Assembly: GCF_002836255.1 (NCBI RefSeq)
Contig: NZ_PJAU01000033.1
Span: 1-64,000 of the forward strand
Length of the DNA stretch: 64,000 nt
Source of the DNA: Colwellia sp. 75C3
GTDB taxonomy: Bacteria > Pseudomonadota > Gammaproteobacteria > Enterobacterales > Alteromonadaceae
Direction of reading: 5' to 3'
The position numbers and the translations under genes were made by a program. Positions within the stretch are counted from its first letter, which is position 1, and the number at the start of each line of letters is the position of its first letter. Shown piece by piece: positions 55,603-63,876 of the stretch. Under the pieces are notes generated by a model. It saw nothing but the letters and a program-made list of their open reading frames with translations. It had not been told where the DNA came from and did not search any database.

Positions 55603-55698
55603 ATGACGATTCATCCTGTCTATAAACCCAATGACCAAGAAGTGCATGGTGAAATGACAACGTTTTTAAAGGCTACCCAGCTGTCAGTTAGTGATTAA
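55603..55698 (+). pseudogene. Remnant of a second hydrolase gene (3' end)
   Basis: A short 31-codon frame ends in the same GEMTTFLKATQLSVSD as the intact hydrolase. The preceding residues (VYKPNDQEVH) align with TYNPYYQEML at reduced identity. It has no ribosome binding site and no room for a catalytic domain, so it is read as the tail of a lost paralogue. Confidence 0.6.
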
Positions 55699-56027
55699 CG
55701 CGCGTACTTCAACCACAGCTTATAAAAAACAGCATTACATGTTGGATTGTCATCCATTTTTCCATCTCTATCACAATCTGAACCGGTCAACGATTTAGCC
55801 ACTTGTTGACCGTATTCCTCTATATCTGCTTTAGTTGGCATTACCGTTATAGTCACCTTCGGTGATTGATCAATAAAGTCCGCCACATCTAAGTAGCCAG
55901 TAAATACTTCTTTAGTAATCAAATGACTAATATCACGTGCGACTGGATTTTTTGCACTTAAAGTTAGTGGTGTTAAAGCTAAACTTGCTGCCAGAAGCAG
56001 AATTATAAATTTCATTAAAGTCATCAA
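55695..56027 (-). CDS. Small exported protein with a DxDxDG-type loop
   Basis: The 110-residue protein has a signal peptide (about 1-24, LLLAASLALTPLTLSA). The mature part ends in GSDCDRDGKMDDNPTC, which contains an EF-hand-like DxDxDG calcium loop enclosed by two cysteines that could form a disulfide. I do not recognise the family. ATG at residue 5 is an alternative start. It is convergent with the hydrolase, and its 3' end overlaps the duplicated segment. Confidence 0.7.
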   Translation of the reverse strand: MMTLMKFIILLLAASLALTPLTLSAKNPVARDISHLITKEVFTGYLDVADFIDQSPKVTITVMPTKADIEEYGQQVAKSLTGSDCDRDGKMDDNPTCNAVFYKLWLKYAR

Positions 56028-56352: not shown

Positions 56353-56370
56353 CATCCCTGATTTGGGATG
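56353..56370. promoter_or_regulatory. Candidate activator site 1 (CATCCC-N6-GGGATG)
   Basis: CATCCC-TGATTT-GGGATG is a perfect six-base-arm inverted repeat. The same arms and spacer length recur 33 bases downstream. Its centre lies about 127 bases upstream of the predicted sigma-54 transcription start, a normal enhancer position. Confidence 0.75.
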
Positions 56371-56385
56371 TATTTTCATTTTCCT

Positions 56386-56403
56386 CATCCCAAAAGTGGG
56401 ATG
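56386..56403. promoter_or_regulatory. Candidate activator site 2 (CATCCC-N6-GGGATG)
   Basis: CATCCC-AAAAGT-GGGATG has the same arms as site 1, here extended to nine bases each side (CCTCATCCC and GGGATGAGG). The 33-base centre distance is about three helical turns. The likely ligand is the NtrC-family regulator encoded at 61180-62568. Confidence 0.78.
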
Positions 56404-56462
56404 AGGTTATTTAATAATTCCACCACTAAATGTAACGTACTGTTTTATATGCTTAATTATTG

Positions 56463-56478
56463 TGGCACAACTTTCGCT
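56463..56478 (+). promoter_or_regulatory. Sigma-54 (-24/-12) promoter of the export operon
   Basis: TGGCAC-AACTT-TCGCT matches TGGCAC-N5-TTGCW with one mismatch. The invariant GG (56464-56465) and GC (56476-56477) are 12 bases apart, exactly as required. Transcription would start near 56489, 27 bases before the adaptor gene. Confidence 0.75.
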
Positions 56479-56515
56479 TAGTTAAGCTTATATTAAAAAA
56501 CAATTTAGGTCTGTT

Positions 56516-57772
56516 ATGGACATCATTAAGCAAACTAAAAAGCCCATTTATAAAAATAAAAAATTCCTTACCGCTGCGGGCGTAATTACACTGGCGGGTT
56601 TATTGATTGCCAGCTCACAAATACGTTTTGCTGGATTTTCTGTGCAATCGAATTCGGTGATTACTGCCGTGGTTAAGCAAGGTGATTTTGATATTAAAAT
56701 TTCAGGGCCAGGTATTTTAGCGCCTAGGGATGTACGTTGGGTTGCTAGTACTGTCGCTGGCAAGGTTGAACGTATTTTAGTAAAACCCGGTGCACATGTA
56801 ACCAAAGGACAATTAATTGTTGAGTTGCTTAACCCTGAGTTAGACCAAAAAGTACAAGAGTTACACTGGGAAGTCGAAGCCATGCAAGCACAAACTCGTG
56901 CATTAAAGGTTGGTCAAGACACACAAGTACTTGATATGAAGGCTAGTACTTTAGATACACAAATGCGATATGAAAAAGCCAAAATGCGATTAGATGCTGA
57001 AGCGCAATTAATCAAAGTAGGTAATTCTACAGTGTCAAAATTGGATTTTGCTTCATCAAAGCTAACGGTTAATCAACTAGTCAAAACCATTGAAATTAAT
57101 GAAATGAGAGCAAAGCAATTATTGCTTAATTTAGCCGCACAATTTGAAGCGCAAACTGCCTTACTTAATAAGTTAAAAAAGATGTATGAAAGAGCACAAT
57201 TTCAATTGGCCTCACTTAATGTTAAAGCCCCTTTAGCTGGAGTATTACAAGCGATGCCACTTGAATTAGGCCAACGTGTTGCGATTGGTGGCAATATTGC
57301 TAAGTTTGCTAAAAAAGGTGATTTAATTGCTGAATTAAAAGTACCAGAGCTTAATGCCGGCGATATCATTATCGGACAAAAAGTTAGCGTTGATACACGT
57401 TTCAATCAAATTCAAGGCAAGGTCATTCGTATAGACCCTGCGGTAGTGAATGGCACAGTACAAGTGGATGTTGAGCTTACCTCGATACTACCGGATGAAG
57501 CTAGACCTGACCTGTCCATTGATGGTGAAATATTTATTACCCAGAAGAAAAATAGCATTTTTGTTAGGCGTCCTGCTTTTTCTCAAGCAAACCGAACTAT
57601 GTCCATATATTTACTTAATAGCGAGCAAAGCAGTGCTAGGCAAACAGAGGTGCAATTTGGCTTATCGTCGAGTATTGATATCGAAGTGACTAGCGGCTTA
57701 AAAGCGGGAGACCGAATTATTGTCTCAGAGCAAAGTAGTTTTGAACGCCATAAACAAGTTGCGCTGAATTAA
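56516..57772 (+). CDS. HlyD/MacA-type periplasmic adaptor subunit
   Basis: The 418-residue protein has one N-terminal membrane anchor (about 18-36) and a biotinyl-lipoyl-like half before and after a long coiled-coil hairpin (about 110-220, Leu/Ala/Gln-rich). A beta-barrel domain and a membrane-proximal domain follow. VERILVKPGAHVTKGQLIVEL and LQAMPLELGQRVAIGG are the lipoyl halves. Adaptors of this type link an inner-membrane transporter to a TolC-like outer channel; none is encoded here. It is the first gene of the sigma-54-type operon, followed by an ATPase and a permease. Confidence 0.9.
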   Translation: MDIIKQTKKPIYKNKKFLTAAGVITLAGLLIASSQIRFAGFSVQSNSVITAVVKQGDFDIKISGPGILAPRDVRWVASTVAGKVERILVKPGAHVTKGQLIVELLNPELDQKVQELHWEVEAMQAQTRALKVGQDTQVLDMKASTLDTQMRYEKAKMRLDAEAQLIKVGNSTVSKLDFASSKLTVNQLVKTIEINEMRAKQLLLNLAAQFEAQTALLNKLKKMYERAQFQLASLNVKAPLAGVLQAMPLELGQRVAIGGNIAKFAKKGDLIAELKVPELNAGDIIIGQKVSVDTRFNQIQGKVIRIDPAVVNGTVQVDVELTSILPDEARPDLSIDGEIFITQKKNSIFVRRPAFSQANRTMSIYLLNSEQSSARQTEVQFGLSSSIDIEVTSGLKAGDRIIVSEQSSFERHKQVALN

Positions 57773-57887
57773 TAAGACAGTCAGTTCAAGTCAATAATTA
57801 ATTGAATAACGAACTAACCAAGAACGAATATAAAAAATAATAAAACAATTAAAACTAACAACATCAAGATTAATAAAGGAATAACCA

Positions 57888-58604
57888 ATGAAGACATTAA
57901 TTAAATTAGCCAATCTAAAAAAAGTATTCTCTACCGATGAAGTAGAAACACATGCGCTGAGTGATATTAATTTAGAGGTTAAGCAAGGAGAGTACTTATC
58001 TATTGCTGGCCCTTCGGGTTGTGGTAAGTCGACATTATTGTCGTTATTAGGGCTACTCGATACCAGTTCTGGTGGCTGTTATACCTTAAATGGTCATGAT
58101 GTTGTTGATATTAATCACAAGCAAAGAGCGGCAATACGTAATAAAGAAATCGGCTTTGTTTTTCAGTCGTTCAACTTAATTAGTGAATTAACGGTTGCCG
58201 AAAATGTGGCCCTGCCATTAACGTACCGTAAAGACTTAAGTAAAACTGAGCGTACTGACTTAGTAAAAGCAGCCCTTGAAAAAGTAGATATGGGACATCG
58301 CACCAAACACTACCCTTCACAATTATCTGGTGGTCAACAACAACGTGTAGCGGTAGCTCGTGCTATTGCTGGCAACCCGTCAATTATCTTAGCGGATGAA
58401 CCAACGGGTAACCTTGATTCGAAAAATGCGGAATTGGTAATGGCCTTACTTGATAAATTACATGCAGAAGGCGCGACCATTTGTATGGTGACTCATGATC
58501 CAAGAGGGGCTAAGCGTGCCGATCGTATTATTGAAATTTTTGATGGCCGTATTGTCTCAGACTCGCCAACCTCAGAAGCTCATATTGAAGAAGCCGTTGC
58601 TTAA
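57888..58604 (+). CDS. ABC transporter ATP-binding protein (MacB/LolD type)
   Basis: The 238-residue ATPase has Walker A GPSGCGKSTLLSLLG (about 41-55), the Q-loop in FVFQSFNLI, the signature LSGGQQQRVAVARAIAG and Walker B IILADEPTGNLDSKNAE, with H-loop THD. Sequence and length place it in the MacB/LolD/FtsE group, which works with FtsX-like permeases by mechanotransmission. It lies 115 bases after the adaptor and 3 bases before the permease. AAGGAATAACC gives a good ribosome binding site. Confidence 0.95.
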   Translation: MKTLIKLANLKKVFSTDEVETHALSDINLEVKQGEYLSIAGPSGCGKSTLLSLLGLLDTSSGGCYTLNGHDVVDINHKQRAAIRNKEIGFVFQSFNLISELTVAENVALPLTYRKDLSKTERTDLVKAALEKVDMGHRTKHYPSQLSGGQQQRVAVARAIAGNPSIILADEPTGNLDSKNAELVMALLDKLHAEGATICMVTHDPRGAKRADRIIEIFDGRIVSDSPTSEAHIEEAVA

Positions 58605-58607
58605 GGA

Positions 58608-61043
58608 TTGATGATGAATATTTTATCAGATATAAATTTCACCTTGCGAACCTTGATTAAAAACCCTAGGTTTACCGCGTTAACGGTTTTTGTAATGACC
58701 ACTGGCTTAACATTATGTATTTACATGTTTAGCTTTATCCATGGTTCATTAGTTGCACCACTGCCTTTTGAAAAGGGTGAGCGTATTAGGTCCGTGAGTA
58801 CGATTTACAACGGTATGCAATATAATGGTGCTAGCTTTAGAGTACATGATTTTGAAGATATAAAAAAACGTGTACAAAGCTATGAAATGTTTGATGCTTA
58901 TACTATAGGTACCGTTAATCTTAGTACCAGTGACCGCGCAGTTAAATATACCGGACATTATGTACAAGAAAGCTTTTTTGAAATATCTGAAGCCAAGCCA
59001 CTATTAGGTCGTTTAATAACCAATGAAGATGGGTTATCAGGTGCCGAGCCAGTAACGCTTATTAGCCATACACTTTGGCAAAATATGTTTGCTGGCGATA
59101 AGGATGTTTTAGGAAAGAAGCTAAGAATAAATACTAAACCAACCACTATTGTGGGTGTTATGCCTGATAGTTATCAATTCCCGAGTGCAGGTCGAATTTG
59201 GTTACCTTATACCACCACGGCTAAAGGTGTTGCGCGTAAAGATGGTAAATATGTCGCTGTATATGGTGTGTTAAAGCCAGGTGTTAGTGATGAACAAGCG
59301 AATGTTGAATTACGCGGGTTAATGGCTGAATTAGAAGAAACTTATCCTAAACTTAACTCTAATACCTCGGCACATGTTTGGACATTACAAGCAGAGGCGA
59401 TGGGCAGTGGCACACCTACTATCATACTTGCCATGGAGCTAGCGGTTGGCTTTATTCTATTACTTGCCTGTATCAATGTAGGTAACTTATTGTTTTCTCG
59501 TGCAACAGAAAAAGGTAAAGAAACAGCTATCCGTACCGCCTTAGGTGCGCCGAGATCAAGATTAATCATGCAAATGATGTGGGAATCTACGCTTATTTGT
59601 ACTATATCAGGTGTTTTAGCGGTACTTTTTGCTGGTTTGTGGTTAGAAATCGCCAATAAAGATTTATTGTCTTCATTCCCTTTTGACGCACCTTTTTGGT
59701 GGAATATTCATATTACGCAAACCTCCATTATAGCGGCGATAGTAATCACTTTAGTCACTGCATTTATTACCGGCATATTACCTGCCTTTAAGGCAACATC
59801 AGGCGACTTTAATGCCACTTTAAGAGATGGTACTCGTGGCGCGCAAAGTAAAGCCTCGGGGAGATTAAGCAAAGTTATTGTGATTTCTGAAGTTGTATTA
59901 TCTTGTGCTTTATTATTACTTTCAACAGGTATGGTCTATTCGGTAAATCAGCAAAATAATATTGATTATGGTACCAGTGTTGAGAATATATTTACTGCGC
60001 GTGTTGGCTTACCTGAAGCTGAATATAAAAGTGATGAAAAAAGATTACAATATTACCAAAACTTAAAGGCTGCTTTAATATCCGAGCCTGCAATTTCAGC
60101 GGTAAGTTTCACTAGAACAATACCGGGTAATGGTGCTAGCTATCAAAACATCTCACTTGATGGTGTTGATTACGGTAAAAAACCGCAATACCCAAGTTCA
60201 AGCTCTGTTGGGGTTGATCATAATTATTTCTCAGTCATGACTATGAACTTACGCGAAGGTCGACTTTTCGACTCAAGAGATAAGATTGGCAGCCCTTTAA
60301 CGGCAGTAGTTACGGATAACTTTGTCAATAAATTCTTCCAAGACGGCGTAGCTTTGGGTAAGCGTTTTAAATTCATTGAAACAGATAAAGATTGGTATAC
60401 CGTTATTGGTGTTGTTAATGATGTTATTCATGGTCAGCCGATGTCATTTAATATTGAAAAACCAACCGCGTTTATCTCTATAAAGCAAACCCCTAAGCGT
60501 TTTATGTCAGTGGTTATTAAAACAGTTGTAAGCGATGCGAAAAACGTGCCTGATTTAGCTAAAACAGTTGCCGATAGCATTCAAAAAATCGAACGAGATG
60601 CTCCTGCTTATGATGTTAAAACCTTGCGTGATTCTATTACGGGTCGTAATGCGGGTATGAACTTTGTTAGTGAGCTATTTCTTGTGTTTGCAGCTGCGTC
60701 TATGGTGTTAGCGTTTAGTGGTATTTATGGCGTGATGTCGAATACCATCATACAAAAAACCCAAGAAATTGGCATTAGAAGAGCGTTGGGTGCAGATAAC
60801 AGTGATATTTATAAGCACTTCATTAAGCAAGGCTTAAAGCAGCTGGTGATAGGTTTGTGTATTGGTGTTCCAATGGGCGTAGTGTTAGTGACTATGTTAG
60901 AAGAATCTTCAATAGCGCAAGGCTCGCTTATGCTTTATGTAGGTGTACCGACATTTATCAGCTTGGTTATTTTACTGGCGGTGTATTATCCGGTAAGTCG
61001 AGCACTGAAGATGGAACCCTGTGCTGCGTTAAGGCATGAATAA
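58608..61043 (+). CDS. MacB/FtsX-type ABC permease
   Basis: The 811-residue protein has one N-terminal membrane helix (about 20-45), a periplasmic MacB_PCD domain, then a three-helix FtsX unit (about 275-400), a second helix and periplasmic domain (about 430-680), and a second three-helix FtsX unit (to 805). KGKETAIRTALGAPRSRL and TQEIGIRRALGADNSDI are the two coupling segments. The duplicated arrangement is that of the double-length ABC permeases of the YknZ/SalY kind. The substrate is unknown; antimicrobial peptides or exported peptides are usual for the type. Confidence 0.93.
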   Translation: MMMNILSDINFTLRTLIKNPRFTALTVFVMTTGLTLCIYMFSFIHGSLVAPLPFEKGERIRSVSTIYNGMQYNGASFRVHDFEDIKKRVQSYEMFDAYTIGTVNLSTSDRAVKYTGHYVQESFFEISEAKPLLGRLITNEDGLSGAEPVTLISHTLWQNMFAGDKDVLGKKLRINTKPTTIVGVMPDSYQFPSAGRIWLPYTTTAKGVARKDGKYVAVYGVLKPGVSDEQANVELRGLMAELEETYPKLNSNTSAHVWTLQAEAMGSGTPTIILAMELAVGFILLLACINVGNLLFSRATEKGKETAIRTALGAPRSRLIMQMMWESTLICTISGVLAVLFAGLWLEIANKDLLSSFPFDAPFWWNIHITQTSIIAAIVITLVTAFITGILPAFKATSGDFNATLRDGTRGAQSKASGRLSKVIVISEVVLSCALLLLSTGMVYSVNQQNNIDYGTSVENIFTARVGLPEAEYKSDEKRLQYYQNLKAALISEPAISAVSFTRTIPGNGASYQNISLDGVDYGKKPQYPSSSSVGVDHNYFSVMTMNLREGRLFDSRDKIGSPLTAVVTDNFVNKFFQDGVALGKRFKFIETDKDWYTVIGVVNDVIHGQPMSFNIEKPTAFISIKQTPKRFMSVVIKTVVSDAKNVPDLAKTVADSIQKIERDAPAYDVKTLRDSITGRNAGMNFVSELFLVFAAASMVLAFSGIYGVMSNTIIQKTQEIGIRRALGADNSDIYKHFIKQGLKQLVIGLCIGVPMGVVLVTMLEESSIAQGSLMLYVGVPTFISLVILLAVYYPVSRALKMEPCAALRHE

Positions 61044-61079
61044 CATCATTTTCAACCAAGCGTACTTTAACTAAATTTT

Positions 61080-61108
61080 AAAAAGCCTTTTCTTAGAAAA
61101 GGCTTTTT
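61080..61108 (+). terminator. Terminator after the ABC permease
   Basis: AAAAAGCCTTTTC pairs perfectly with GAAAAGGCTTTTT across TTA and ends in five T. It lies between the permease and the regulator, so the regulator and kinase are either expressed by readthrough or from their own promoter in 61109-61179, where none is evident. Confidence 0.85.
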
Positions 61109-61179
61109 GTCATAGTGTTTTCTCACTTATCAGAAAACCGTTAAGCAGAATTCAATTTACCTAATAACAGGAAGTTTTT

Positions 61180-62568
61180 GTGTCCCATATTCTTATTGCT
61201 GATGACGATGCCAGTATAGTTGCCGCTTTGCGTTTATTTTTAAAAAGCGAAGGTTTTCAGGTAACAACGGCTACCAGTCCTGCTGAAGTTGAATTTTTAA
61301 TAAAATCTAAAGAAATTGATTTAGCGTTAATCGATCTCAATTATCAGCTAGATACTACCTCAGGTATAGAAGGGGTAGAGCTTACTCAAAAGCTGAAAAA
61401 TTATGATGCGGACTTAGCGGTAGTTTGTATGACCGGGTGGGCTACCGTGGAAATTGCTGTACAGGTCATGCAGTCTGGCGCTGGCGATTTCATTCAAAAA
61501 CCTTGGGAAAATGATCGGTTATTATCTGTTATTAATAACCAACTGGCGTTAAGACAGCAAACTAAAAATAATTTAAAACTAACTGAAGAAAATAATAACT
61601 TAAAGCAACAAATTGCGGTGTTAGATGGTAATGACATGGTGGCTGAATCCGCAGCGATGAAAAGTCTGCTCAGCACGCTTGAGCAAATTGCTAAGGCAGA
61701 TATCAACATTCTAATTACTGGCGAAAACGGCACAGGTAAAAGTTTATTGGCGAGTCATATTCATCAATTGAGCCAACGTGCAGATAATACCTTTGTATCG
61801 GTGAATATGGGGGCAATCACTGACTCATTATTTGAAAGTGAAATGTTTGGTCATGTTAAGGGGGCTTTTACCGATGCTAAAGAAAATCGCATTGGTCGGG
61901 TTGAGTTAGCAGAGCAAGGCACGTTATTTTTAGATGAAATAGCTAATATCCCCTTGGCTCAGCAAGCTAAGTTACTCAGACTATTAGAGGAGCACCAATA
62001 TGAAAAAGTGGGTGCGAGTAAAACTCAACAAGCAAATATTAGAGTGATCAGTGCTACTAATAGTGATTTACAACAAATGGTGCAAGAGAAAAGCTTTCGC
62101 CAAGACTTACTCTTTCGTTTGAATACTTTTGTGGTTGAAATTCCGCCATTAAGAACGCGCCTTGATGATATTTTACCCATGGCTGAAGCGTTTATAGTGA
62201 AATGTGCAGCTAGATATAACAAAGCTGTACCTAAATTGTCAGTTCAAGCAGAGCAACAGTTATTAACTTATCAATGGCCGGGAAATGTCCGGGAGTTAAG
62301 TCATACCTTAGAAAGAGCCACCTTATTAGCCGGAGATGAAATTTTTACCGAGCACTTAATGTTGGTTGAAGTCGTTAACGAAGCAGCCCAACAAACCTCA
62401 TCAACTCCCCAACATGCTTTTGAAGATGAAATGACTATGGATGACATTGAAAAGGCAGTGATTGAGAAAAGACTAAAACTCAATAAAGGCAATGCTTCTG
62501 ATGCAGCTAAATCCTTAGCTATGAGTCGAAGCGCTTTTTATCGTCGCCTAGATAAATTTGGACTTTAA
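61180..62568 (+). CDS. Sigma-54-dependent response regulator (NtrC family)
   Basis: The 462-residue protein starts with GTG, preceded by CAGGAAG. It has a receiver domain (1-125, Asp52 in LIDLNYQL), an AAA+ domain (about 150-380) with Walker A GENGTGKS (181-188), the sigma-54 contact loop GAFTDA (228-233), Walker B TLFLDEIAN and arginine finger segment RQDLLFRLN, and a Fis-type helix-turn-helix at the C-terminus (ASDAAKSLAMSRSAFYRRL). It is paired with the kinase 3 bases downstream. It presumably activates the -24/-12 promoter at 56463. The contact loop reads GAFTDA rather than the canonical GAFTGA. Confidence 0.95.
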   Translation: MSHILIADDDASIVAALRLFLKSEGFQVTTATSPAEVEFLIKSKEIDLALIDLNYQLDTTSGIEGVELTQKLKNYDADLAVVCMTGWATVEIAVQVMQSGAGDFIQKPWENDRLLSVINNQLALRQQTKNNLKLTEENNNLKQQIAVLDGNDMVAESAAMKSLLSTLEQIAKADINILITGENGTGKSLLASHIHQLSQRADNTFVSVNMGAITDSLFESEMFGHVKGAFTDAKENRIGRVELAEQGTLFLDEIANIPLAQQAKLLRLLEEHQYEKVGASKTQQANIRVISATNSDLQQMVQEKSFRQDLLFRLNTFVVEIPPLRTRLDDILPMAEAFIVKCAARYNKAVPKLSVQAEQQLLTYQWPGNVRELSHTLERATLLAGDEIFTEHLMLVEVVNEAAQQTSSTPQHAFEDEMTMDDIEKAVIEKRLKLNKGNASDAAKSLAMSRSAFYRRLDKFGL

Positions 62569-62571
62569 TTA

Positions 62572-63876
62572 ATGTTTAATGGCCCTTTTGAAAAACGAAT
62601 ATTCACCACCGTATTATGGGCTATTTTACCTAGCTATTTTCTAGCATTATTTTTGTTGTGGTACATAGACAGCATTTTTTATTTACAAGCGCTGGTGACA
62701 ATTTTCTTGTCGGCTATTGTTGGTTTTTCTTTTCATCATTTTTATTATGACCTGAAAGATCAATTTATTTCTCTCTCGAATCTAGTAGAAGCCTTGAATA
62801 TTGGTGATTTCTCCTTGCGTGGTAAAGCAGAATCAGGGCAGAGCGGCCATAGTGACTTGATCAGACAAGTAAATAAATTAGCTGATTCACTCACTACCGC
62901 GCGTTATGACTTTAAAGAAAGTCAGTTACTGCTAGCCAAGGTTATTAAACAAATTAAAGTCGCCATTATTGCCTGTGATCAACAAGGTAAAATTACCATG
63001 GTAAACCCAGAGACAGAGTTGTTGCTGGGATTAAGTGAGTCGAAATTACGTCATAAAACATTAAAGGATGTAAATTTAGGGCAATTAACCGAATTGAAGT
63101 CTAATTCGATAGAAAAACTGACTGTCGGTTCTCGTACTGCTCGTTGGCATATTTTCAAAGATGGTTTTCGTGATCAAGGCCAGCAACATAGCCTATATAT
63201 TTTTTCAGATTTAGATTTATTACTAAGCCAGCAAGAGCAAGAGGCATGGAAGAATTTGGTCAGAGTATTAAGTCATGAAATTAATAATTCATTAGCCCCT
63301 ATTATCTCGTTAGCTTCTACGTTAGATAAATTAACCGCGCGAAGTGATATTGAACTCGAAGATAAAGAAGATATTCAATCAGGCTTAAAGATTATCCAAG
63401 ATAGAGCCACCAGTTTAAAACACTTCCTGGCAGGTTATCGGGTACTTACTCACTTACCACAGCCGCAATGTAAACGTGTTGATATTATTCCTGTTATTGA
63501 ACAATTAGTGTCATTATTGAATTACCCTGTGAATTTAAGGGTACCAGAGCAAGCGGAATTGATGATCGATATTGCCCAATTGGAGCAATGCCTAATTAAC
63601 CTGTTAAAAAATGCTCATGAAGCCTCAGGGAAAAATAGCGAGATTGATTTACTGATAAAAAATAAAGCTAATCAGCTGGTCATTTATATTTTAGATAAAG
63701 GTCCAGGCATACAAAATTTAGATAATGTATTTGTGCCGTTATTTACTACAAAAACTCAAGGCACGGGTATAGGTTTATCACTGTGCAAGCAAATCATTGA
63801 AGGTCACCAAGGGCAGTTACGTTTATCTAATAGAGCTGAAGGTGGTTGTCAGGTAGAGATTAATTTACCGAAGTAA
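62572..63876 (+). CDS. NtrB/NtrY-like sensor histidine kinase
   Basis: The 434-residue protein has two N-terminal membrane helices (about 13-32 and 36-56), a HAMP-like/PAS region (about 60-210: KVAIIACDQQGKITMVNPET), the H-box with His235 in RVLSHEINNSLAPI, and an HATPase domain (LINLLKNAHEA, YILDKGPGI, GTGIGLSLCKQIIEGH). The HEINN H-box is that of NtrB/NtrY-type kinases that pair with NtrC regulators. With almost no periplasmic loop it probably senses a membrane or intramembrane signal, as BceS-type kinases do. It ends the locus. Confidence 0.92.
   Translation: MFNGPFEKRIFTTVLWAILPSYFLALFLLWYIDSIFYLQALVTIFLSAIVGFSFHHFYYDLKDQFISLSNLVEALNIGDFSLRGKAESGQSGHSDLIRQVNKLADSLTTARYDFKESQLLLAKVIKQIKVAIIACDQQGKITMVNPETELLLGLSESKLRHKTLKDVNLGQLTELKSNSIEKLTVGSRTARWHIFKDGFRDQGQQHSLYIFSDLDLLLSQQEQEAWKNLVRVLSHEINNSLAPIISLASTLDKLTARSDIELEDKEDIQSGLKIIQDRATSLKHFLAGYRVLTHLPQPQCKRVDIIPVIEQLVSLLNYPVNLRVPEQAELMIDIAQLEQCLINLLKNAHEASGKNSEIDLLIKNKANQLVIYILDKGPGIQNLDNVFVPLFTTKTQGTGIGLSLCKQIIEGHQGQLRLSNRAEGGCQVEINLPK

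What the first reader, a model, noticed from the sequence alone, without database searches (positions are those of the whole stretch)
56353..63876. Self-contained sigma-54 circuit controlling a MacB-type export system
Upstream of the adaptor gene are two copies of CATCCC-N6-GGGATG (centres 33 bp apart, about three turns), then a -24/-12 element with exact GG/GC spacing. The locus also encodes an NtrC-family regulator and an NtrB/NtrY-like kinase with short periplasmic loops. The simplest reading is a positively controlled export or stress system that senses its substrate at the membrane and activates its own transporter. The transporter type is known; this combination of twin sites, sigma-54 promoter and permease looks little described. 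Regulator-site binding is inferred.
Basis: partly seen in the sequence, partly recalled or inferred. Interest (0 to 1): 0.75.

Follow-up and report, generated by a model that had tools for sequence, protein, structure and literature searches.

The report
Sigma-54 switch for a membrane exporter
A marine bacterium carries an export pump whose promoter has two matching landing sites, a fixed distance apart, probably for a regulator encoded beside it, and many relatives keep this layout while changing the letters of the sites, so each pump may have its own switch.

Summary
Two exact CATCCC-N6-GGGATG sites (56353-56370, 56386-56403; centres 33 bp apart) and a -24/-12 element (56463-56478) precede a five-gene block: adaptor, ATPase, ADOP/MacB-type permease, NtrC-type regulator, kinase. 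The exact site occurs nowhere else in the 5.4 Mb genome. In 65 distinct syntenic loci, 60 have a -24/-12 element (control 67 of 1210 windows) and 47 have their best site pair 32-34 bp apart (control 98 of 1223). Site letters differ between lineages and follow the regulator's DNA-binding helix; 17 of 65 loci fail the combined test. The kinase has two helices joined by about 4 residues, a sign of sensing inside the membrane or through the transporter, as in Gram-positive Bce modules; this is untested. A hairpin terminator conserved in the window clade separates permease from regulator, so "self-contained" fits the parts list, less clearly one transcript. A 2025 survey already predicted sigma-54 control of this permease class (PMC12316311, passages read). 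Verdict: new variant of a known kind; binding and activation remain inferred.

The parts
56353..56370 (.). upstream operator 1, CATCCC-N6-GGGATG
   Evidence: exact; left arm 6/6 and right arm 4/6 columns invariant in six window-type loci, window included
56386..56403 (.). upstream operator 2, CATCCC-N6-GGGATG, centre 33 bp from operator 1
   Evidence: exact; 12/12 arm columns invariant in the same six loci
56463..56478 (+). sigma-54 type -24/-12 element TGGCACAACTTTCGCT
   Evidence: 11/16 columns invariant in the same six loci; an element of this type in 60 of 65 syntenic loci
56489..56489 (+). expected transcription start (12 bases after GC)
   Evidence: inferred from the element; not mapped
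56516..57772 (+). periplasmic adaptor (HlyD/RND_mfp family)
   Evidence: PF13437, TIGR01730 above cut-offs
57888..58604 (+). ABC ATPase of the LolD/MacB/DarD type
   Evidence: PF00005; best NCBIfam match DarD, below its cut-off
58608..61043 (+). ADOP-family duplicated MacB-type permease, 811 aa, 8 TM segments predicted by hydropathy
   Evidence: TIGR03434 634.7 bits against cut-off 622.3; hydropathy
61080..61108 (+). hairpin with T tail, likely intrinsic terminator, between permease and regulator
   Evidence: present in 6 of 6 window-type loci; RNA fold of 61085-61150 z -3.6; not listed by the consensus terminator scan
61180..62568 (+). NtrC-family response regulator (REC, AAA+ with GAFTDA, Fis-type HTH), GTG start
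   Evidence: PF00072, PF00158, PF02954; motifs
62572..63876 (+). two-TM sensor kinase (HAMP-like stretch, PAS, DHp, CA), no periplasmic domain
   Evidence: PF00989, PF02518; alignment; model with mean pLDDT 85.4

Best explanation
The locus is an inducible exporter with its own sigma-54 switch. A two-helix kinase without a periplasmic sensor domain picks up a membrane-borne signal, most likely the exporter's substrate or its handling by the transporter, and phosphorylates the NtrC-type regulator beside it (inferred). Regulator dimers bind the two 18-bp palindromes centred near -94 and -127, three helical turns apart, assemble an AAA+ ring and remodel sigma-54 polymerase at the -24/-12 element (inferred from conserved layout and from matching of sites to DNA-binding helix). 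This turns on adaptor, ATPase and permease, which push a toxic or signalling amphiphile, probably peptide-like, out through an outer-membrane channel encoded elsewhere (inferred from family). A conserved terminator after the permease keeps regulator and kinase at least partly off that transcript, so feedback would run mainly through the transporter (inferred). Shown here: genes, sites, spacing, conservation, predicted kinase topology, an rpoN gene in the genome. Inferred: binding, phosphotransfer, activation, substrate.
For: 60 of 65 syntenic loci have a -24/-12 element, 46 of these 60 at -50 to -54 from the (re-anchored) adaptor start, against 67 of 1210 control windows; the best palindrome pair is 33 bp apart in 34 of 65 and 32-34 in 47 of 65, against 98 of 1223 controls at 32-34. 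One locus per 80%-identity regulator cluster: 32 of 37 with the element, 21 of 37 with spacing 32-34. Distances from site 2 to -24 lie at 58-60, 68-73 and 79-84 in the 19 of 37 cluster representatives that pass the filter; 0 of 2000 uniform draws reach that periodicity. Operator arms are invariant in 22 of 24 columns of six window-type loci, against 6 of 97 upstream and 7 of 59 between site 2 and -24. Site letters track the HTH, partial Mantel 0.386, 0 of 1000 permutations. One rpoN match. REC and AAA+ key motifs are intact in the window protein.
Against: No binding, phosphorylation or expression data. 17 of 65 syntenic loci fail the combined test; in several no clear pair was found (for example L015, L019, L020, L023, L026, L038), while L013 and L065 fail because their element lies closer to the anchored start than the range scanned. 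49 non-syntenic loci give 3 signature hits against 3 in shuffles. The first operator-HTH test, before register correction, was negative (partial -0.023), and after correction the rest of the regulator correlates almost as well (partial 0.36). The best helical period is about 11.5 bp rather than 10.5 (R 0.70 against 0.63). The mirror-tree test did not single out the kinase's membrane part. The activator loop is GAFTDA, not GAFTGA, in 65 of 68.
Confidence: 0.82

Rival explanations
1. Sensing variant A, compatible with the circuit above: the kinase is itself the sensor. Its two helices respond to membrane perturbation or a membrane-inserted ligand, and the exporter is only an output.
For: PAS domain plus two helices with a 4-residue break; no evidence specific to kinase-permease contact: the partial correlation with the permease is 0.411 for the membrane part and 0.404 for the catalytic part.
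Against: 108 of 118 loci picked by regulator similarity hold a permease or ATPase gene similar to the window's (BLAST above 60 bits) within the fetched stretch; so short a loop leaves little room for a ligand site.
Confidence: 0.4
2. Sensing variant B, compatible with the circuit above: transporter-coupled (Bce-like) sensing. The exporter's conformational cycle on substrate switches the kinase, so flux and not concentration is read.
For: Same logic as BceAB-BceS, where the kinase needs BceB and active BceA to respond (PMC5985334 passages; PMC6978683 passages); GraS has a 9-residue loop and its signalling is modulated by the permease VraG (PMC7951975 abstract); gene linkage in 68 of 118 loci in the same order.
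Against: Permease topology differs from BceB, the regulator family differs, no interaction was tested, and the mirror-tree test is unspecific.
Confidence: 0.4
3. The palindromes are transcription terminators or a leader RNA structure, not protein sites.
For: Both hairpins are picked up by the terminator scan.
Against: They lie upstream of the promoter; the 6-base arms are conserved while most flanking stem bases are not; spacing is kept across different site letters; the scan found 4 hits in the region against 5.7 expected.
Confidence: 0.03
4. The sites bind a repressor or a different activator encoded elsewhere.
For: Binding is not shown; this is an open possibility rather than a result of any call.
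Against: Site letters co-vary with the HTH of the adjacent regulator; tandem sites upstream of -24/-12 are the usual enhancer layout (PMC7910581 passage).
Confidence: 0.06

Closest known systems
E. coli NtrB-NtrC and the glnA promoter
   Same: Tandem enhancer sites about 90 and 140 bp upstream of the start (PMC7408454 passage) with sigma-54 promoter; here about -94 and -127.
   Different: Site letters, target (an exporter) and a membrane kinase; the spacing of the glnA sites (32 bp) is recalled only.
BceRS-BceAB and GraRS-VraFG modules
   Same: MacB-superfamily ABC permease beside a kinase with a very short loop, plus a regulator (PMC5985334 passages; PMC7951975 abstract).
   Different: NtrC/sigma-54 instead of an OmpR-type regulator (recalled), a periplasmic adaptor is present, permease with two MacB_PCD and two FtsX stretches; transporter-dependent sensing untested.
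MacRS-MacABCsm of Stenotrophomonas maltophilia
   Same: Dedicated two-component system beside a MacAB exporter (PMC10295115 passage).
   Different: Divergent gene order and own outer-membrane channel there; sigma-54 control is not mentioned in the passage read.
ADOP permeases (TIGR03434)
   Same: The permease scores above the family cut-off.
   Different: Here with adaptor, separate ATPase and a sigma-54 two-component pair.
Predicted sigma-54 control of COG0577/FtsX-like permeases (PMC12316311)
   Same: Sigma-54 promoters predicted for this permease class in gamma-Proteobacteria, Opitutia and Bacteroidia (passages).
   Different: 'Inverted repeat' and 'upstream activat' do not occur in its main text; COG-level, and the passages read give no operator code and no link to a neighbouring kinase.

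Membership tests
NtrC-type sigma-54 response regulators | REC with acidic pair, phospho-Asp, Thr and Lys | tested here: met
   window protein; the four commonest variants at each motif in 68 sequences keep the key residues
NtrC-type sigma-54 response regulators | AAA+ domain with GAFTGA loop | tested here: met
   PF00158 E 8.2e-65; loop is GAFTDA in 65 of 68, a one-residue variant
NtrC-type sigma-54 response regulators | Fis-type HTH | tested here: met
   PF02954
NtrC-type sigma-54 response regulators | binds enhancer sites and activates sigma-54 polymerase | not testable with these tools
   inferred from layout and co-variation
ADOP permease (TIGR03434) | score above curated cut-off | tested here: met
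   634.7 against 622.3
MacB proper (NF007826) | equivalog score and fused ATPase domain | tested here: not met
   117.4 against 966; ATPase is a separate gene
Darobactin exporter DarBCD | equivalog scores | tested here: not met
   DarC 84.8 of 450, DarD 260.1 of 375, DarB 70.5 of 700
Bce-type module | two-helix kinase with very short loop | tested here: met
   prediction only
Bce-type module | 10-TM permease with one large loop between TM7 and TM8 | tested here: not met
   8 TM segments by hydropathy, two MacB_PCD stretches; definition from PMC5985334
Bce-type module | kinase needs the transporter to sense | not testable with these tools
   mirror-tree unspecific

The most novel reading that the evidence does not exclude
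A Gram-negative, sigma-54-wired counterpart of Bce flux sensing: MacB-type exporters that act as their own sensors through intramembrane kinases, duplicated within one genome and kept apart by twin-operator codes that changed together with the regulators' DNA-binding helices while the 33-bp geometry stayed fixed.
Probability: 0.32. Interest if true: 0.78.

Novelty: new variant of a known kind. Interest (0 to 1): 0.56.

Why it matters
It turns a COG-level hint about sigma-54 and MacB-type permeases into a defined circuit with operators, promoter, regulator and kinase that can be tested locus by locus. It offers a natural series of regulator-operator pairs (four in this genome) for studying how enhancer codes diverge under fixed geometry, and a candidate for transporter-coupled sensing in Gram-negative bacteria.

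Tried and rejected
The 1-mismatch site at C3:176376 is inside a UvrC-like frame, so it is not counted as a regulon member. The signature was not found in 49 non-syntenic loci of the genome-contig scan beyond chance: 3 hits against 3 in shuffles; the same strict rule finds only 39 of 65 syntenic promoters, so this is weak evidence of absence. Palindromes as terminators: rejected. Mirror-tree evidence for kinase-permease contact: unspecific. The first operator-HTH Mantel test gave partial r -0.023. I traced this to a 1-base register slip in the TGTGTC group; after register correction (5 of 48 loci shifted, using T at position 3 and C at position 6, so invariance of those two letters is partly by construction) it gave 0.386. 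A first terminator rule missed three window-type loci through its tail criterion and was relaxed (6 of 63, then 9 of 63; mononucleotide shuffles 0 of 1260 both times; two of the 65 gaps were too short to scan). The consensus scan did not list the 61080-61108 hairpin. Eight paper searches for the combination or its parts and two for known works showed no title or abstract start that describes a twin-site sigma-54 circuit for a MacB-type exporter; two searches returned nothing, and searches showed only the top of longer lists. I saw passages of nine papers and the abstract of one.
Full report
What was checked. The exact palindrome occurs twice in the 5.4 Mb genome, both times here; for 12 fixed letters at equal base frequencies about 0.3 would be expected (own arithmetic). 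The genome has one match to the sigma-54 DNA-binding domain. Nearest named isolate: Colwellia piezophila (L006).

Collecting relatives. A search of 99 genomes (own included) gave 26 with a match at E 1e-130 or better, with 43 match places. Of these 118 loci (80, 37 and the window), 68 hold adaptor-ATPase-permease-regulator-kinase in that order on one strand. L040 was dropped for a cut upstream region, and L130 and L132 as duplicates, leaving 65. The window type itself (84% identity or more) is patchy: 6 of 39 genomes of its genus.

Promoter. Adaptor starts were re-anchored at the first in-frame start codon followed by GAT or GAC within 50 codons, where there was one. A -24/-12 element scoring 18.5 or more then lies in the 100 bases examined in 60 of 65 loci, 46 of these at -50 to -54; the same rule passes 67 of 1210 random windows of the same loci. 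A group of loci that includes the own-genome paralogue L120 has GT instead of GC at -12.

Twin operators. A score that knows nothing of the letters, only that four half-sites should agree, finds its best pair at exactly 33 bp in 34 of 65 loci and at 32-34 bp in 47 of 65; random windows give 32-34 in 98 of 1223. Pair scores of 35 or more: 34 of 65 against 15 of 1223. An earlier run on 67 loci gave 47 at 32-35 against 146 of 1340 dinucleotide shuffles. With one locus per 80%-identity regulator cluster, 21 of 37 lie at 32-34. L008, L028 and L134 have a pair 22-23 bp apart, about two turns. A stricter whole-locus scan finds the full signature at the adaptor promoter in 39 of 65 loci and 4 times elsewhere in 1.95 million strand-bases. 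Distances from the second site to -24 fall at 58-60, 68-73 and 79-84 in the 19 cluster representatives that pass the filter (maximal R 0.70 near a period of 11.5, 0.63 at 10.5; 0 of 2000 uniform draws as high as the maximum); among all loci single values of 91 and 94 also occur. This is what one would expect if one face of the helix matters. 17 of 65 loci fail the combined test; L013 and L065 do so because their element lies outside the range scanned.

Footprint. In the six window-type loci (window, L005, L006, L117, L118, L119), operator arms are invariant in 22 of 24 columns, the -24/-12 element in 11 of 16, the 97 bases upstream in 6 and the 59 bases between site 2 and -24 in 7. L005 has a degenerate right arm in site 1.

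Operator code. In the 48 loci that pass, half-sites share a frame close to NNTCYCR but differ by lineage: CATCCC with helix SLAMSRSAFYRR (6 loci), TTTCCCA with SLGLSRSALYRR (6), CTCG-type with SLGLSRSSYYRR (8), TGT[GC]TC-type with SLGLSRSGYYRR (11), mixed TCCCA-type with SLGLSRSAFYRR (10), and seven loci in five smaller groups. Operator distance correlates with HTH distance beyond the rest of the regulator (partial 0.386, 0 of 1000 permutations); the converse partial is 0.36, so lineage effects are not fully removed. The four loci of this genome (window, L120, L121, L122) carry different operators. Those of L122 are the nearest to the window's: its first site matches the window pattern with 2 mismatches (C1:377256). 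Exact matches to an L121 pattern occur only at its own promoter; exact matches to an L120 pattern only at its own two sites, with 22 further places at one mismatch against 28 for the reversed control at up to one mismatch. Insulation in vivo is inference, and least sure between the window and L122.

Kinase. Hydropathy gives a loop of 14 residues or fewer between the first two helices in 66 of 68 kinases; for L065 and L134 the method called only one of the two N-terminal segments, though both align with the others there. The AlphaFold2 model from 37 sequences (mean pLDDT 85.4, pTM 0.57) shows helices 6-31 and 36-76, then helix 92-127 (HAMP-like, recalled), PAS, DHp and catalytic domains. There is no periplasmic sensor domain. 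This is the anatomy of intramembrane-sensing kinases, of which Gram-positive examples work with MacB-superfamily transporters (PMC5985334 and PMC6978683: passages; PMC7951975: abstract).

Transporter. The permease passes the ADOP family cut-off and fails MacB proper and DarB; the ATPase is separate; the adaptor is RND_mfp/HlyD type. No outer-membrane channel gene is among the five; whether the genome has a TolC was not tested. The substrate is unknown; a peptide-like or amphiphilic toxic compound is inferred from family only.

Transcript structure. A hairpin with T tail at 61080-61108 is kept in the six window-type loci. By rule, hairpin terminators are found in 9 of 63 permease-regulator gaps (those six plus L009, L126, L128) and in 0 of 1260 mononucleotide shuffles. 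The consensus terminator scan did not list it and showed no sigma-70-like promoter in 61043-61180. So the exporter is the likely sigma-54 unit, and the regulator-kinase pair is at least partly separate in this clade; in 54 of 63 gaps no such terminator was seen.

Novelty. Sigma-54 promoters were predicted for this permease class in 2025 (PMC12316311, passages only), with a claim of first evidence. None of my 10 completed paper searches showed, by title and abstract start, a description of twin operators, the operator code or the kinase anatomy for such exporters; only the top of longer lists was seen, most listed papers were not opened, and subscription literature is mostly outside the library. 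Each element is known; the combination and the conserved geometry with changing letters make it a new variant.

Noticed in passing
L146:11350-12183 (G003:C45): Downstream of the kinase lies a second pair of sites 33 bp apart (first one weak, pair score 33, the threshold) and a -24/-12 element before a 220-aa membrane protein: a possible extra target of that regulator, or chance.
   Followed up: partly
L120 and related loci, upstream regions: The -24/-12 element reads TGGCAC-N5-TTGT, with GT instead of GC at -12, in a group of Colwellia-type loci.
   Followed up: partly
L008, L028, L134 upstream regions: Operator pairs 22-23 bp apart instead of 33, i.e. about two turns.
   Followed up: no
window 55695-56027 (-): 110-aa reading frame with TTG start between the hydrolase gene and the promoter region; no Pfam or NCBIfam match.
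   Followed up: no
49 non-syntenic loci, many from Acidobacteria (such as L044, L045, L072): Related regulator-kinase pairs, many beside permease genes similar to this one, but without the twin-site sigma-54 signature by the strict scan; control there may be built differently.
   Followed up: partly
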